DNA of 64,000 nucleotides from positions 3,720,001 through 3,784,000 of the forward strand of contig NZ_AP024525.1 of assembly GCF_020886775.1 (NCBI RefSeq), read 5' to 3'. The number at the start of each line of letters is the position of its first letter. Position 1 is the stretch's first letter. The position numbers and the translations under genes were made by a program. A model generated the notes under the pieces. The model had not been told where the DNA came from, did not search any database, and saw nothing but the letters and a program-made list of their open reading frames with translations. This document shows, in pieces, positions 24,107 to 40,396 of this stretch. The DNA comes from Sinomonas cyclohexanicum (GTDB lineage: Bacteria > Actinomycetota > Actinomycetes > Actinomycetales > Micrococcaceae).

Positions 24107-24126
24107 GCGCCGCGCCGCGTTCTGGC

Positions 24127-24363
24127 GCGAAGGTTCGTGCGTGGCCGGTGGTTGCGCCGTGTGTGTGCGGGATGGATGCTGGGGGTGTCCGTCGCGGTCG
24201 ACCCCGAACCTTCTGTGGTGCCGGTGAGCCTGTCCTCCAGCATGGTGGCGGAGGGCCTCCGCGGGAACCGTGGATTGGTGCCTTTGAGCCCGAGCGTCAG
24301 ACTTCCGAATCTCTCCTGCCCTCCCCGCGGCGGACGCCATTCCGATCGGAAAGGAGCCAGGCG
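24127..24363 (+). ncRNA. Candidate bridge RNA region of the IS110 element
   Basis: In IS110-family elements a structured RNA from the non-coding end specifies target and donor DNA (known for IS621). This 237-bp region precedes the transposase ATG, has no open frame that looks coding, and is conserved in the second copy up to the IS256 insertion. It contains ACCTTCTG at 24208-24215, the reverse complement of CAGAAGGT in the right flank of both copies; that is what a right target guide would look like. The match is only 8 nt in a GC-rich repeat-rich genome, so this is a lead, not proof. Confidence 0.45.
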
Positions 24364-25602
24364 ATGGAACTCCTCCATCCCAGGTGCGCGGGAATCGACA
24401 TCTCCAAGCGGGACGCGAAGGTCTGCGTCCGCATCGCCGGGACGGGCCGCGCCAAGGCCGTCGAGACGGTCACGACATGGTCCTCCATGACCGGTCAGAT
24501 CCTGGCCCTGCGCGAACACCTCGCCCAGCAGCAGGTCACGTGCGTGGTCATGGAGGCCACCAGCGACTACTGGAAGCCGTTCTACTACCTCCTCGAGGAC
24601 CTGCCCGGGGTCGAGGTCATGCTGGTCAACGCCCGGCAGGTGAAGAACGTCCCGGGAAGGAAGACCGACGTGGCCGACGCGACCTGGCTGGCCCAGCTCG
24701 GCGCGCACGGGCTCGTGCGGGCCTCGCTCGTCCCCCCGGCCCCGATCCGCCAGCTGCGCGACCTGACCCGGACCCGCACCGCGATCACCCGCGACCGGGC
24801 CCGGGAGGCCCAGCGACTGGAGAAGCTCCTGGAGGACGCCGGGATCAAGCTCTCCTCCGTCGCCACGGACATCCTCGGGGTCTCCGGGCGGGCCATGCTC
24901 GAGGCCCTGATCACCGGCAACACCGACCCCGGGGCCATGGCGGAGCTGGCCAGGACCAGCCTCAGGCCCAAGATCCCAGCCCTGACCGAGGCCCTGACCG
25001 GCCGGTTCACCGCCCACCACGCCTTCCTGGCCCGGATCCACCTGGACCTGATCGACCAGCACACCGCCGCGATCGAGACCCTCACCGCCCAGATCGAGGC
25101 ACTCATGGAGCCCTTTCGCGGCTTCCACGACCTGATCACCACCATCCCGGGGATCAGCACCACGATCGCCGACGTCATCGTCGCCGAGACCGGCGCGGAC
25201 ATGTCCCGCTTCCCCACCGCCGAGCACCTGGCCTCCTGGGCCGGCACCGCCCCGGGGAACAACGAATCCGCCGGCAGGGTCAAGTCCTCCCGCACCCGCC
25301 CCGGCAACCCCTACCTCCTGGGAGCCCTGGGCATCTTCGCCATGGTCTGCGCGAACCACCCCGGCACCTACCTCCACGCCAAATACCGCCGCATCGCCGC
25401 CCGCCGCGGCCCGATGAGGGCCATCGTCGCACTCGAGCACACGCTCCTGGTCACAATCTGGCACATGGGCACCACCGGCACCCTCTACCAGGACCCCGGC
25501 CCCGACTACTACACCCGCAACCACCCCGACCGCGCCAAGAACCGCGCCATCCACCAGCTACAGGCCCTCGGATACAACGTCACCCTCGACCACGCCTCAT
25601 AA
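24364..25602 (+). CDS. IS110-family transposase, copy 1
   Basis: This 412-residue DEDD transposase carries the N-terminal RuvC-like domain starting AGIDISKRDAKVCVR (first Asp), then VVMEATSDYWKPFYYLL (Glu) and PGRKTDVADATWLAQL (the Asp pair), and a C-terminal Transposase_20 domain with TTIPGISTTIADVIVAE and the Ser-containing region SWAGTAPGNNESAGRV. The ATG at 24364 follows GGAAAGGAGCCAGGCG. The protein is the same length as the one at 39098, with no visible amino-acid difference. Confidence 0.95.
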   Translation: MELLHPRCAGIDISKRDAKVCVRIAGTGRAKAVETVTTWSSMTGQILALREHLAQQQVTCVVMEATSDYWKPFYYLLEDLPGVEVMLVNARQVKNVPGRKTDVADATWLAQLGAHGLVRASLVPPAPIRQLRDLTRTRTAITRDRAREAQRLEKLLEDAGIKLSSVATDILGVSGRAMLEALITGNTDPGAMAELARTSLRPKIPALTEALTGRFTAHHAFLARIHLDLIDQHTAAIETLTAQIEALMEPFRGFHDLITTIPGISTTIADVIVAETGADMSRFPTAEHLASWAGTAPGNNESAGRVKSSRTRPGNPYLLGALGIFAMVCANHPGTYLHAKYRRIAARRGPMRAIVALEHTLLVTIWHMGTTGTLYQDPGPDYYTRNHPDRAKNRAIHQLQALGYNVTLDHAS

Positions 25603-25632
25603 CCCAACGAGCACACCCCACCGGAACCTTCG

Positions 25633-25671
25633 CGTCAGAAGGTGACCCCCGGAAGGTGACTCCCAGACGGG
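25633..25671. repeat. 14-bp-period repeat array at the right side of IS110 copy 1
   Basis: GTCAGAAGGTGAC, CCCCGGAAGGTGAC and TCCCAGACGGG follow the insertion sequence directly. This array is the apparent target of the element. Confidence 0.65.
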
Positions 25672-35667: not shown

Positions 35668-35704
35668 GCGGGAGGTGCCCCGCAGGACCTGACCCCCAGC
35701 ATGG
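35668..35704. repeat. 14-bp-period repeat array left of IS110 copy 2
   Basis: CGCGGGAGGTGCC, CCGCAGGACCTGAC and CCCCAGCATGGGGG follow with 14-bp spacing, then 28 bp of GC-rich sequence precede the insertion sequence. Confidence 0.55.
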
Positions 35705-36825
35705 GGGCGCCGCCTGCGGGGCGCACCGTGGTGCGCGAAGGTTCGTGCGTGGCCGGTGGTTGCGCCGTGTGTGTGCGGGATGGATGCTGGGGGTGTCCGT
35801 CGCGGTCGACCCCGAACCTTCTGTGGTGCCGGTGAGCCTGTCCTCCAGCATGGTGGCGGAGGGCCTCCGCGGGAACCGTGGATTGGTGCCTTTGAGCCCG
35901 AGCGTCAGACTTCCGAATCTCTCCTGCCCTCCCCGCGAGGGTGTCAGATGGTTTGTGTGAGGGCGGTGTCCCTGACAGAAAGCCGAGACACTGATGAGCA
36001 TGGTCAGCAAGGAAGAGCGGCAGGAGCGCCGCAGGGCCCAGCGTGAGGGCGTGGAAGCGCTCGAGGCGTCGGGGGCGCTGGATGAGCTGTACTCGATGAT
36101 CGATGCCGGGCAGGTCCAGCTCGAGGGCAGGGACGGGCTGATCCAGCAGCTGATCAAGGCCGGCCTCGAGCGCGGGATGCAGGCCGAGCTGTCGGACCAC
36201 CTCGGGTACGAGAAGGGCGACCCGGACGCGGCGCTGTTCCCGAACTCGCGCAACGGCTCGTTCCCGAAGACTGTCGGCACGATCGCCGGGGACGTGGAGC
36301 TCGCGGTCCCGCGGGACCGGGACGGGACCTTCACACCGATGCTCGTGCCCAAGGGCGCCCGGCGCCTGTCCGGGCTCGATGACATGATCATCTCCCTGTA
36401 CGCGGGCGGGATGACGGTGCGCGACATCGAGCATCACCTCGTCTCCACGGTCGGCACCGAGGTCAGCCGCGAGACGATCTCCAAGGTCACCGACGAGGTC
36501 CTGGACGAGGTCCTGGCCTGGCAGCGCCGGCCGCTGGAGTCCTTCTACCCGGTCATCTACCTGGACGCGATCGTGGTCAAGGTCCGCGACGGGGCGCACG
36601 TGCGCAACAAGGCCGCGCACATCGCGGTCGGGGTGGACATGGACGGGATCAAGCACGTGCTCGGGATCTGGGTCCAGGCCGCCGAGGGCGCGAAGTTCTG
36701 GGCCGGGGTATGCGCCGAGCTGGCCAACCGCGGCGTCCGGGACGTACTCATCGTCTGCTGCGACGGGCTCACCGGCTTCCCCGAGGCGATCGAGGCAACC
36801 TGGCCCGAGTCGCTGGTGCAGACCT

Positions 36826-37073
36826 CATCTGTCCACAATGGCGGTGGCCGAACCGTTCGGCCAGCCACCTGCGCCGTGGCGGTCAGAACCCTTGCAGACG
36901 CGTCGCCCTCGAGGCCCACATGCAGACCCGTTCGGCCGCCGCGGGGCAGAATCGTGAATCAGCCAGCGGGAGATGCGACGCCGGTGCGGCGATCGCCGAG
37001 ATGAGGTCCTGACGCGAGGCTGCCGCGCATCCCCGGCACAGGTGGGTTCAGTCCGAGAGGAAGGACCTGCGGT
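36826..37073 (+). ncRNA. Candidate bridge RNA region of the nested element
   Basis: This non-coding 5' region has a strong hairpin at about 36844-36870 (GTGGCCGAA and TTCGGCCAGCCAC). It contains TGCAGACC at 36921-36928 and TGCAGAC at 36893-36899, identical to the left half of the rebuilt target. A left target guide is expected to have the same sequence as the top strand. Eight-base matches can arise by chance, so confidence is low. Confidence 0.35.
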
Positions 37074-38386
37074 ATGACAAGTACTGAACTGGCTACCGCT
37101 GCCGGGACCCCCGAGGTGTTCGCCGGCGTGGACTGGGGCGGTGCGTTCCACCAGCTCTGCCTCGTCGACTCGACCGGGGCCACGCTGCTGCAGAAGCGCT
37201 TCCCGCACACCGTCGAAGGCCTTGCCGGGCTGTGCGCCGCCCTTGCCGCGGTCGCTGGCGTGGTCCGGGTCGCCATCGAACGCGCCGAAGGGCTCCTGGT
37301 CGAGCGGCTGCTCGAGCTGGCCGTGGAGGTCTACTGCATCTCCCCGAAGGTCTCCGCCCGGTCCCGGGAGCGCTACCGGATGGCCGCGAAGAAGTCCGAC
37401 GCGTTCGACGCCTTCGTCCTGGCCGACAGCCTCCGCCACGAACACACCCATTGGCGCCCGATCCGACCCGCGTCCCAGACCCTGATGCGCCTGCGCGCCG
37501 TGATCCGCGACCGCGAGCGGCTCGTGTGGCGCCAGCGCGACCTGGAGAACCAGCTCCGGGCGGTGATGGAGTCCTACAACCCTGCGGTCCTGCACCTGTT
37601 CTCCAGCCTCGACCGGGACATCTCCCTGCAGTTCATCAGGCGCTACCCACAGCCCGCCCAGGCCGCCCGCGTCGGGGTCAAGCGCATGGACGCCTTCATC
37701 ACCGCCCACGGCTACTCCGGGCGCACCAGCGCCGAGACCCTCGTGGAACGCCTCCGCCCCACCTGCTCGCCGCGGGCGAGGGCACCAGCGCCGGCCGGGC
37801 GTTCACCGCAGTGCGGATGGCCGAGGAGCTCTCCCTGCTCAACGGGCACCTGCGCGAATACGACACCGAGATCCGGGCACTGCTCGCCGCCCACCCCGAC
37901 ACCCGGATCTTCACCGCCTTCCCCGGCGTCGGCCCCGTCACCGCCGCGACCCTCCTGGCAGGGATGGGCGAGGACCGCGACCGGTACCCCTCCGCGGCGT
38001 CGCTGCTGGCCGAGACCGGGCTCGCTCCCGTCACCCGCGCCTCCGGGCGCACCCGCCAGGTCCGCTTCCGCTACGCGGCGAACAAGCGCATGCGCCACGC
38101 GATCGACTGGTGGGCCTTCGTCGCCGTCCGCGAGGACCCCCACTTCACCGGCGAGCACTACCGAAGGGCCCGGGCCGCAGGCCAAGGCCACCACCGCGCA
38201 CTGCGCGGCGTCGCAGCCCGCTGGGTCCGCATCCTCTGGCGCTGCTGGCACGACCGCACCGAATACGACCCGGCCCTGCACCCCCTACGCCGGCAGGCCC
38301 TCGAAGCCGCCGACCACGCCCAGGACACCGGCCCCATCCCCCAGCGCACCGCAGAGGAACACCTGGCACTGCCCGCCGCGAGCTGA
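37074..38386 (+). pseudogene. IS110-family transposase with a frameshift
   Basis: The N-terminal RuvC-like domain is in the frame starting at 37074 (FAGVDWGGAFHQLCLVDS, then VAIERAEG and KKSDAFDAFVLADSLR), and the C-terminal Transposase_20 domain (IFTAFPGVGPVTAATLLAGM) continues in another frame to 38386. One base is missing near 37752-37762, in a stretch containing CGCCCC. The restored protein would have about 437 residues. Either the element is dead or there is a sequencing error at the C run. Confidence 0.85.
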
Positions 38387-39097
38387 GCCCACGCACACCC
38401 CCAGCGGACGGGAAGCCCCCGCCCGCCGATCAGCCCTGCCCCCCGCGACCCCCATCCGGACCCCAGGGGTTGACAGCGGGAGTCTGCGTGGTGCACCTGA
38501 TCCGGGCCTCGATGCGGTTCGTGGCCTACGGCCAGCGCAAGGCCGTCGCCGCGGCCCTCAAGACGGTCTATCAGGCCCCGAACGAGGCCGCCGCGAAGGC
38601 GGCCCTTGAGGAGTTCGCGGCCTCCGAGCTGGGGAAGAAGAACCCCAACACGGTCCGGGCGTTCCAGGACGCCTGGGAGCGGTTCATCCCGTTCCTGGCG
38701 TTCCCGCCGATGCTGCGCCGGGTCATCTACACCACCAACGCGATCGAGTCGCTGAACTACCAGCTGCGCAAGGTCATCAAGAACCGCGGCCACTTCCCCT
38801 CCGACGACGCGGTCGTGAAGCTGCTCTGGCTCGCGATCTGCAACATCGAGGACAAGCGCGCCCGCCAACGGGCCAAGGAGCGCGGACTGCCCGCACACCG
38901 GCGCAAGGCCGACGGGCGCCTCGTCCAAGGCCAGGTCACCACGAACTGGAAGCAGGCCCTGGCCCAGCTCGCCCTGGCCTACCCCGAACGCATCAACCCC
39001 TACCTCTGAACCAAACCGGAGACCGACCACTCACACAAACAACTTGACACGCTCCTCCCCGCGGCGGACGCCATTCCGATCGGAAAGGAGCCAGGCG

Positions 39098-40336
39098 ATG
39101 GAACTCCTCCATCCCCGGTGCGCGGGAATCGACATCTCCAAGCGGGACGCGAAGGTCTGCGTCCGCATCGCCGGGACGGGCCGCGCCAAGGCCGTCGAGA
39201 CGGTCACGACATGGTCCTCCATGACCGGTCAGATCCTGGCCCTGCGCGAACACCTCGCCCAGCAGCAGGTCACGTGCGTGGTCATGGAGGCCACCAGCGA
39301 CTACTGGAAGCCGTTCTACTACCTCCTCGAGGACCTGCCCGGGGTCGAGGTCATGCTGGTCAACGCCCGGCAGGTGAAGAACGTCCCGGGAAGGAAGACC
39401 GACGTGGCCGACGCGACCTGGCTGGCCCAGCTCGGCGCGCACGGGCTCGTGCGGGCCTCGCTCGTCCCCCCGGCCCCGATCCGCCAGCTGCGCGACCTGA
39501 CCCGGACCCGCACCGCGATCACCCGCGACCGGGCCCGGGAGGCCCAGCGACTGGAGAAGCTCCTGGAGGACGCCGGGATCAAGCTCTCCTCCGTCGCCAC
39601 GGACATCCTCGGGGTCTCCGGGCGGGCCATGCTCGAGGCCCTGATCACCGGCAACACCGACCCCGGGGCCATGGCGGAGCTGGCCAGGACCAGCCTCAGG
39701 CCCAAGATCCCAGCCCTGACCGAGGCCCTGACCGGCCGGTTCACCGCCCACCACGCCTTCCTGGCCCGGATCCACCTGGACCTGATCGACCAGCACACCG
39801 CCGCGATCGAGACCCTCACCGCACAGATCGAGGCGCTCATGGAGCCCTTTCGCGGCTTCCACGACCTGATCACCACCATCCCGGGGATCAGCACCACGAT
39901 CGCCGACGTCATCGTCGCCGAGACCGGCGCGGACATGTCCCGCTTCCCCACCGCCGAGCACCTGGCCTCCTGGGCCGGCACCGCCCCGGGGAACAACGAA
40001 TCCGCCGGCAGGGTCAAGTCCTCCCGCACCCGCCCCGGCAACCCCTACCTCCTGGGAGCCCTGGGCATCTTCGCCATGGTCTGCGCGAACCACCCCGGCA
40101 CCTACCTCCACGCCAAATACCGCCGCATCGCCGCCCGCCGCGGCCCGATGAGGGCCATCGTCGCACTCGAGCACACGCTCCTGGTCACAATCTGGCACAT
40201 GGGCACCACCGGCACCCTCTACCAGGACCCCGGCCCCGACTACTACACCCGCAACCACCCCGACCGCGCCAAGAACCGCGCCATCCACCAGCTACAGGCC
40301 CTCGGATACAACGTCACCCTCGACCACGCCTCATAA
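39098..40336 (+). CDS. IS110-family transposase, copy 2
   Basis: This 412-residue open frame corresponds to the transposase at 24364, with the same DEDD residues and C-terminal domain. Only synonymous differences from copy 1 are visible. It is intact, but its 5' non-coding region is cut by the IS256 element 36 bp upstream of the ATG, so it may be transcribed from the IS256 right end, or not at all. It could act in trans with the RNA of copy 1. Confidence 0.95.
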   Translation: MELLHPRCAGIDISKRDAKVCVRIAGTGRAKAVETVTTWSSMTGQILALREHLAQQQVTCVVMEATSDYWKPFYYLLEDLPGVEVMLVNARQVKNVPGRKTDVADATWLAQLGAHGLVRASLVPPAPIRQLRDLTRTRTAITRDRAREAQRLEKLLEDAGIKLSSVATDILGVSGRAMLEALITGNTDPGAMAELARTSLRPKIPALTEALTGRFTAHHAFLARIHLDLIDQHTAAIETLTAQIEALMEPFRGFHDLITTIPGISTTIADVIVAETGADMSRFPTAEHLASWAGTAPGNNESAGRVKSSRTRPGNPYLLGALGIFAMVCANHPGTYLHAKYRRIAARRGPMRAIVALEHTLLVTIWHMGTTGTLYQDPGPDYYTRNHPDRAKNRAIHQLQALGYNVTLDHAS

Positions 40337-40396
40337 CCCAACGAGCACACCCCACCGGAACCTTCGCGTCAGAAGGTGACCCTCAGGGCCCAGGGG

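What the first reader, a model, noticed from the sequence alone, without database searches (positions are those of the whole stretch)
24127..24363. IS110 element seems to be targeted to the 14-bp intergenic repeat by its own non-coding RNA
Both copies of this IS110 element have the same right flank, GTCAGAAGGTGACC, a unit of the 14-bp repeat family, although the copies sit in different places. The 5' non-coding region contains ACCTTCTG (24208-24215; again 35816-35823), the reverse complement of CAGAAGGT in the target. IS110 elements are known to use a bridge RNA whose target loop pairs with the integration site. If right, this is a bridge RNA programmed to read a genome-wide repeat, giving many safe intergenic landing sites.
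Basis: partly seen in the sequence, partly recalled or inferred. Interest (0 to 1): 0.85.

Follow-up and report, generated by a model that had tools for sequence, protein, structure and literature searches.

The report
IS110 element RNA-guided to genomic repeat
This is a jumping gene whose own small RNA appears to steer it into a short repeat found all over the spaces between its host's genes; the principle is known from one E. coli element, but here the RNA's guide segments are in mirrored order and tiny 62-64-letter relatives of the element sit in the same repeat.

Summary
The finding holds, with corrections. The window's 4.4-Mb genome carries six copies of one IS110-family element. All six have AGAAGG on the right, 5 of 6 the longer AGAAGGTGACC; the five with an intact left end have the preceding half of the same 14-bp repeat on the left. 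Among relatives the left guide tracks the left flank: 59 of 68 matches in a sister-pair test, 1 of 68 when swapped. Both guides lie on the unpaired sides of one predicted internal loop. The repeat occurs in congeners that lack the element.
Guide-directed insertion into a genome-wide repeat is known (IS621 into REP). Not seen in the text I read: the RNA is upstream, as in IS110, but guide order and the 11-bp sub-terminal inverted repeat are IS1111-like; and eight 62-64-bp MITE-like derivatives sit in the same repeat, one at a site without insert in six congeners. No RNA or transposition was measured.

The parts
24125..25636 (+). IS110-family element, copy 1 (first 35 bp of the left end missing; right end intact)
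24364..25602 (+). 412-aa IS110 transposase (DEDD_Tnp_IS110 + Transposase_20)
24175..24331 (+). core of the predicted bridge RNA (the stretch aligned in A1)
24207..24214 (+). right target guide AACCTTCT, 5' side of the target-binding loop; complementary to the top strand of AG-AAGGT
24230..24240 (+). left target guide CTGTCCTCC-AG (24233-24240 predicted unpaired), 3' side of the target-binding loop; same sense as the left flank
24241..24242 (+). handshake-like dinucleotide CA, equal to the first two bases of the element's left end
24292..24300 (+). left donor guide GAGCGTCAG; GCGTC-AG equals the element's right end
24126..24136 (+). left arm of sub-terminal inverted repeat CGCGAAGGTTC
25624..25634 (+). 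right arm of sub-terminal inverted repeat GAACCTTCGCG
25637..25638 (+). right core dinucleotide AG of copy 1
25639..25652 (+). right target flank AAGGTGACCCCCGG (14-bp repeat)
35698..35937 (+). left end and bridge-RNA region of copy 2, from the left core AG; interrupted afterwards
35684..35697 (+). left target flank AGGACCTGACCCCC of copy 2 (14-bp repeat)
35815..35822 (+). right target guide, copy 2
35838..35848 (+). left target guide, copy 2
35994..39006 (+). Mutator-family (PF00872) transposase gene interrupting copy 2, in two pieces, itself split by another IS110-type transposase gene (37074-38609); ends of these insertions not determined
39054..40370 (+). remainder of copy 2 (transposase and right end); core AG 40371-40372, right flank from 40373

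Best explanation
It is an IS110-family insertion sequence. A structured RNA encoded between its left end and its transposase base-pairs with both halves of a 14-bp intergenic repeat (TGACC[C/T]CC-AG-AAGGTGA) and with the element's own right end, directing recombination at the AG core. The left guide has the sequence of the left flank, the right guide is complementary to the right flank, and the two bases after the left guide match the start of the element, so that guide reads the left junction of the product. The element probably entered this species horizontally, carrying or acquiring guides that fit a repeat that exists without it. Shown by sequence: boundaries, flanks, guide-flank covariation, predicted loop placement, sites without the element in congeners. 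Inferred: that the RNA is made, forms a complex with the transposase, and directs insertion by pairing.
For: Six of 6 copies have AGAAGG on the right; 5 of 5 with a left end match the left guide at 9-10 of 11. Across 49 non-redundant elements, the five bases left of the core agree with five consecutive RNA columns at 0.86-1.00, against 0.43-0.61 expected; over seven positions 5.39 matches against 3.30 shuffled (highest of 1000 shuffles 3.69). Sister pairs: 18 disjoint pairs, 34 differing guide positions, 59 of 68 own matches against 1 of 68 swapped. Right guide: 2.21 of 5 Watson-Crick pairs against 1.50 shuffled, reached by 0 of 2000 shuffles, n = 43. Right-end guide: agreement 0.84-0.98 at four positions. 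Consensus fold: 15 of 34 pairs with compensatory change, both target guides in one internal loop. The repeat is present in congeners without the element. The matching flanks of copy 2 lie 122-410 bp apart in the 7 congener loci examined, of 14 found.
Against: The shuffle controls ignore relatedness; only the left guide has a sister-pair test. In the column scan, wrong-strand controls reached z = 5.0 (left flank) and 4.2 (right flank), so the right guide's z of 4.3, 5.4 and 2.8 is hardly above noise column by column. Right-guide pairing is absent in part of the relatives (7 of 43 with 0 of 5 Watson-Crick pairs). The four-pair stem that closes the target loop is weak: one pair is broken or gapped in 15 of 49 sequences, the own one included, and the other three hardly vary. 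The right donor guide was not found, and a predicted handshake in the donor loop was not seen. The single RNA folds no better than shuffles (174 of 200 at least as well). Rfam: no match. No expression or activity data.
Confidence: 0.92

Rival explanations
1. The transposase protein recognises the repeat; the RNA match is incidental.
Against: Between relatives whose RNAs are 62-90% alike outside the guide, flank and RNA change together: 59 of 68 against 1 of 68 swapped. RNA guidance is experimentally established for other IS110/IS1111 elements (PMC11208160, passages and section 12; PMC11187229, abstract, passages, sections 6, 12, 13).
Confidence: 0.03
2. The six copies reflect homologous recombination or duplication of one inserted repeat, not six guided insertions.
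For: Right flanks are identical over 11 bp in 5 of 6 copies.
Against: Outer flanks differ between the six (by eye), left flanks differ within the repeat, the flanks of copy 2 adjoin without it in 7 congener loci examined, and the guide covariation comes from other genera.
Confidence: 0.04
3. The target is the palindromic GCGAAGRTTC-TTC-GAACCTTCGC repeat, as in REP targeting, and the element sits in its loop (my own first reading).
For: Ten such palindromes occur in this genome and the same arms flank the copies.
Against: Relatives in other genera carry the same left-end sequence as part of the element; 8 of the 10 palindromes carry both ends of the element; the TTC centre fits neither junction; congeners have the 14-bp repeat but not this palindrome.
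Confidence: 0.01

Closest known systems
IS621 with its bridge RNA (IS110 group, E. coli)
   Same: DEDD transposase with PF01548 + PF02371, RNA in the left end upstream of the transposase, internal target-binding loop with two guides, core included in the pairings, handshake bases, insertion into a genome-wide extragenic repeat (REP)
   Different: IS621 has the left guide 5' and the right guide 3' (LTG 50-58, RTG 77-80; PMC11208158, passages read); here the order is right then left. Core AG instead of CT on the coding strand. 11-bp sub-terminal inverted repeat instead of 2-3 bp. The target is a linear, often tandem 14-bp repeat, not a palindrome.
IS1111 group (ISEc11, ISPa11, ISKpn4)
   Same: Top-strand match precedes bottom-strand match in the RNA (PMC11187229, abstract and passages read); long sub-terminal inverted repeats; insertion into repeats such as the Coxiella GTAG palindrome (PMC5896051, passages read)
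   Different: Here the RNA is upstream of the transposase, not downstream; the transposase has 412 aa, not 330-350; the left inverted-repeat arm lies 34 bp inside the core
ISEc21 (IS110 family)
   Same: Upstream non-coding region giving the guide RNA
   [quoted passage not shown] here it is 5'. Transposase 358 aa (section 6) against 412 here

Membership tests
IS110 family (broad) | DEDD RuvC-like N-terminal and Transposase_20 C-terminal domains | tested here: met
   NCBIfam NF033542 251.9 bits against cut-off 140
IS110 family (broad) | same core dinucleotide at both ends | tested here: met
   AG at both ends; AA in relatives L111/L112
IS110 family (broad) | bridge/seek RNA whose guides covary with target and donor | tested here: met
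   right target guide weaker, right donor guide not resolved
IS110 family (broad) | circular intermediate whose RE-LE junction makes the promoter | not tested
   needs PCR or RNA-seq
[quoted passage not shown]
   274 bp from left core to the transposase start in the intact copy
IS110 group (IS621/ISEc21 type) | bottom-strand (left) guide 5' of top-strand (right) guide | tested here: not met
   right guide 24207-24214, left guide 24230-24240; columns in the same order in the 49-sequence alignment
IS110 group (IS621/ISEc21 type) | no or very short (2-3 bp) sub-terminal inverted repeats | tested here: not met
   11 bp here; three positions of the arms covary in relatives
IS1111 group | longer non-coding region and RNA downstream of the transposase | tested here: not met
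IS1111 group | top-strand guide precedes bottom-strand guide | tested here: met
IS1111 group | sub-terminal inverted repeats of 7-17 bp close to both ends | tested here: inconclusive
   11 bp; 2 bp inside the right core but 34 bp inside the left core
IS1111 group | transposase of 330-350 aa | tested here: not met
   412 aa
MITE (mini-elements) | short non-autonomous copies with both ends of the parent, at sites without insert in relatives | tested here: met
   8 copies of 62-64 bp; one site checked, no insert in 6 of 6 congeners aligned; movement itself not shown

The most novel reading that the evidence does not exclude
The 62-64-bp mini-elements are RNA-guided MITEs: they carry only the ends of the element, have no RNA or transposase, and are moved in trans by the parent's transposase and bridge RNA into the same 14-bp repeat, which would make them among the smallest RNA-guided mobile elements. 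The parent belongs to an actinobacterial IS110 clade whose bridge RNA is the mirror image of IS621's: upstream RNA, right guide before left, handshake bases after the left guide.
Probability: 0.55. Interest if true: 0.72.

Novelty: new variant of a known kind. Interest (0 to 1): 0.56.

Why it matters
It extends guide-directed insertion into a genome-wide repeat from the palindromic REP of E. coli to a linear 14-bp repeat in what is, by its relatives, an actinobacterium, with a left guide that differs from those of its closest relatives and fits the repeat: a natural example of retargeting. The mirrored guide order with an upstream RNA would show that the location of the RNA and the polarity of its guides are separable, which bears on how IS110 and IS1111 diverged and on the choice of bridge recombinases for engineering. 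If the mini-elements move in trans, a substrate of about 65 bp suffices for RNA-guided transposition in nature.

Tried and rejected
First reading rejected: the target is the palindrome GCGAAGRTTCTTCGAACCTTCGC (note); overturned when relatives showed the 'left flank' to be part of the element. Single-sequence folding was uninformative (z = +1.1). Rfam gave no match. A search for the right donor guide by covariation gave left-end hairpin partners and scattered columns: unresolved. A predicted second handshake (right flank against the bases after the right-end guide) was not supported: identity 0.53 against 0.51 shuffled. A class-wide search for mini-elements used strict GAAGATTC/GAATCTTC arms and found 0 of 394 genomes; it does not match this genome's own arms (G000 also 0), so it says little about the class. 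For copy 1 no site without the element could be shown: its left flank was not found beside the right flank in 5 congener loci, and a sixth (L244) gave no plus-strand match on either side in that script, so it was not tested.

Literature. Terms IS110/MITE/IS1111: 12 papers listed, 4 opened for passages (PMC5896051, PMC9769881, PMC3718332, PMC10969869), 8 not opened. Terms IS110 family + MITE + non-autonomous: 3 listed, PMC11578231 and PMC2680597 not opened. No IS110-derived MITE in what I read. Other searches. Only open PubMed Central papers are held. PMC12500396 was seen in passages only. Guide order for the long-transposase IS110 subgroup is not stated in what I read of PMC11208160 (passages and section 12), PMC11208158 (passages) and PMC11187229 (abstract, passages, sections 6, 12, 13); figures are not held, so PMC11208160 Fig. 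6d / Extended Data Fig. 10c (which includes ISAar29) could already show it.

Rows dropped before counts: of 109 relatives found, the best 80 were returned; 61 of 80 had a left end that I could place and were used, plus the own element; 49 remained after removing RNAs 90% or more alike; 43 of these had a usable right flank. Left ends were placed partly by eye, by the constant 7-nt spacing between core and conserved hairpin, not by the guide.

Full report
Observation. A search of that genome with the element returns six copies: two uninterrupted (window copy 1 and 3164497) and four in two pieces, including window copy 2. Only 3164497 has both ends and an uninterrupted body. The transposase is 412 aa, with DEDD_Tnp_IS110 and Transposase_20 domains, and passes the NCBIfam cut-off for 'IS110 family RNA-guided transposase'.

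Boundaries. At first the element seemed to sit in a palindrome, because the copies begin GCGCGAAGGTTC and end GAACCTTCGCG, and ten free palindromes of that type exist in the genome. The 80 relatives from other genera changed this. Many of those aligned carry the same kind of extra left sequence, CAGCA-n-GCGCC..GGCGC-ACCGTGG-GCGAAGATTC or its counterpart, upstream, and right ends such as ATCTTCGCGTC-AG. So that sequence belongs to the element. The core is AG (TAG on the left and CAG on the right in several relatives; AA in L111/L112). The element therefore runs from the AG at 35698 in copy 2 to the AG at 40371. Copy 1 has lost the first 35 bp of its left end.

Target. The flanks are the two halves of a 14-bp unit, TGACC[C/T]CC-AG-AAGGTGACC. 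After the right core, 6 of 6 copies read AAGG and 5 of 6 AAGGTGACC. On the left, the 5 copies with an intact end match the left guide at 9 or 10 of 11 positions. Tandem two-unit repeats, one mismatch allowed, number 81 in this genome, 161 in G002, 93 in G004 and 56 in G005, between 1 and 12 in four others, and 0 in 7 of the 15 genomes of the genus searched; the reversed pattern gives 0 in all 15. With the element's DNA, the 14 other genomes gave only short matches, the best being 71 bases at 85% in G002. In a sample of 149 genomes of the family, matches at E<=1e-60 were in 9: G000 and 8 genomes of other genera. So the repeat does not depend on the element, and the element probably arrived horizontally.

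Guides. I paired flanks and RNA for 61 of 80 relatives plus the own element and kept 49 after removing RNAs 90% or more alike. The five bases left of the core agree with five consecutive RNA columns (own RNA positions 143-147) at 0.92, 0.96, 0.86, 0.94 and 1.00, against 0.43-0.61 expected; these are the top five signals of that scan and form one diagonal. The last four bases of the right end before the core agree with own RNA positions 204-207 at 0.84-0.98. The first bases of the right flank are complementary to own RNA positions 121, 120 and 119, antiparallel, with z 4.3, 5.4 and 2.8; but wrong-strand control scans reached z 5.0 (left flank) and 4.2 (right flank), so these columns taken one by one are hardly above noise. 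Over five positions together there are 2.21 pairs against 1.50 shuffled, reached by 0 of 2000 shuffles (2.88 against 2.27 with wobble, also 0 of 2000), although 7 of 43 elements have no Watson-Crick pair there. These shuffles ignore relatedness. For the left guide I therefore compared 18 disjoint pairs of similar elements with different guides: at 34 differing positions the guide matches its own flank 59 of 68 times and the partner's flank 1 of 68 times. In that test the own element is paired with L089 (RNA 72% alike outside the guide): guides GTCCTCC and GTAGGTC, flanks GCCCCCC and CCAGGTC.

Structure. RNAalifold on the 49 sequences predicts 34 pairs, 15 with compensatory changes in at least one sequence. 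A small hairpin (columns 46-66) sits on an internal loop whose 5' side (columns 36-45) holds the right guide and whose 3' side (columns 67-76) holds the left guide. The closing stem (columns 32-35/77-80) is the weak point: one pair is broken or gapped in 15 of 49 sequences, the own one included, and the other three hardly vary. The two bases after the left guide's core equal the first two bases of the element's left end (1.00 and 0.92; shuffled 0.92 and 0.39), as the handshake bases described for IS621 would lead one to expect (PMC11208158, passages read). The matching prediction for the donor loop failed (0.53 against 0.51 shuffled), and the right donor guide was not found. The single own RNA does not fold better than shuffles, and Rfam has no match.

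Comparison. IS621 has its left guide 5' and its right guide 3' (PMC11208158), and ISEc21 has the same order, while IS1111 elements have the top-strand match first but the RNA downstream (PMC11187229). Here the RNA is upstream and the top-strand match is first. An 11-bp sub-terminal inverted repeat, with three arm positions that covary in relatives, is also closer to IS1111 (7-17 bp) than to the 2-3 bp of the IS110 group (PMC11208160, section 12), though its left arm lies 34 bp inside the core. PMC11187229 section 6 describes a 395-455-aa subgroup that includes IS110 itself; ISEc21, the IS110-family member tested there, has 358 aa. By length the present element would fall in the 395-455-aa subgroup; I did not test this by phylogeny. 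I did not find the mirrored order in the text I read; figures are not held, so I do not claim that it is unpublished.

Mini-elements. Eight copies of 62-64 bp consist of 46-48 bp of the left end (core included), TTC, and the 13-bp right end, with AG at both junctions. Their left flanks resemble the 14-bp unit and match the left guide at 6-9 of 11; their right flanks match the right guide at 3-7 of 8, with AGAAGG in 4 of 8. So their target match is looser than that of the full copies, and in one (L180) the right side hardly matches. Two further palindromes have right-end arms on both sides (L181, L182). At one site (L187), six congeners aligned at the orthologous intergenic region lack the insert; in G002, G004 and G010 that region is a 14-bp array. 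The palindrome was not found in the 14 other genomes of the genus. Shared TTC centres suggest one origin followed by spread. Mini-IS constructs with a 29-bp left end and a 16-bp right end around a cargo gene move in ISEc21 experiments (PMC11187229 section 12), so trans-mobilisation is plausible but not shown.

Sites of a full copy in relatives. The right flank of copy 2 was found in all 14 other genomes. In the 7 of these loci that I examined, the matching left and right flanks lie 122-410 bp apart with no room for the element; in G002, G003 and G004, 14-bp units or close variants lie beside the right flank. For copy 1 no such test succeeded.

Verdict. The principle is known; the mirrored architecture and the mini-elements are the parts worth following.

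Noticed in passing
L180, L183 (two in tandem), L185, L186, L187, L188, L189: Eight 62-64-bp MITE-like derivatives of the element in 14-bp repeats; the L187 site has no insert in six congeners.
   Followed up: yes
L181 and L182, at the central palindrome: Two symmetrical palindromes with the element's right-end arm on both sides; origin unknown, possibly reused as terminators.
   Followed up: partly
window 35994-39006: Copy 2 is interrupted by a Mutator-family transposase gene, itself interrupted by another IS110-type transposase gene: nested insertions.
   Followed up: partly
window 24125: Copy 1 has lost its left terminus and left target half, so it should be unable to excise although its transposase and RNA guides are intact.
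   Followed up: no
window 29560 and 48432: Best unoccupied sites in the window matching both target guides; both in 14-bp repeats.
   Followed up: no
G002, G004, G005: The 14-bp tandem repeat is abundant in some genomes of the genus and not found in others; its function and origin are unknown.
   Followed up: no
L058 and L068 (G002:C1:955432-955502 and 955908-955945): G002 has a 71-base, 85% match to part of the element's RNA region and a 38-base match to its transposase gene about 400 bp away on the same strand; perhaps a decayed relative of the element.
   Followed up: no
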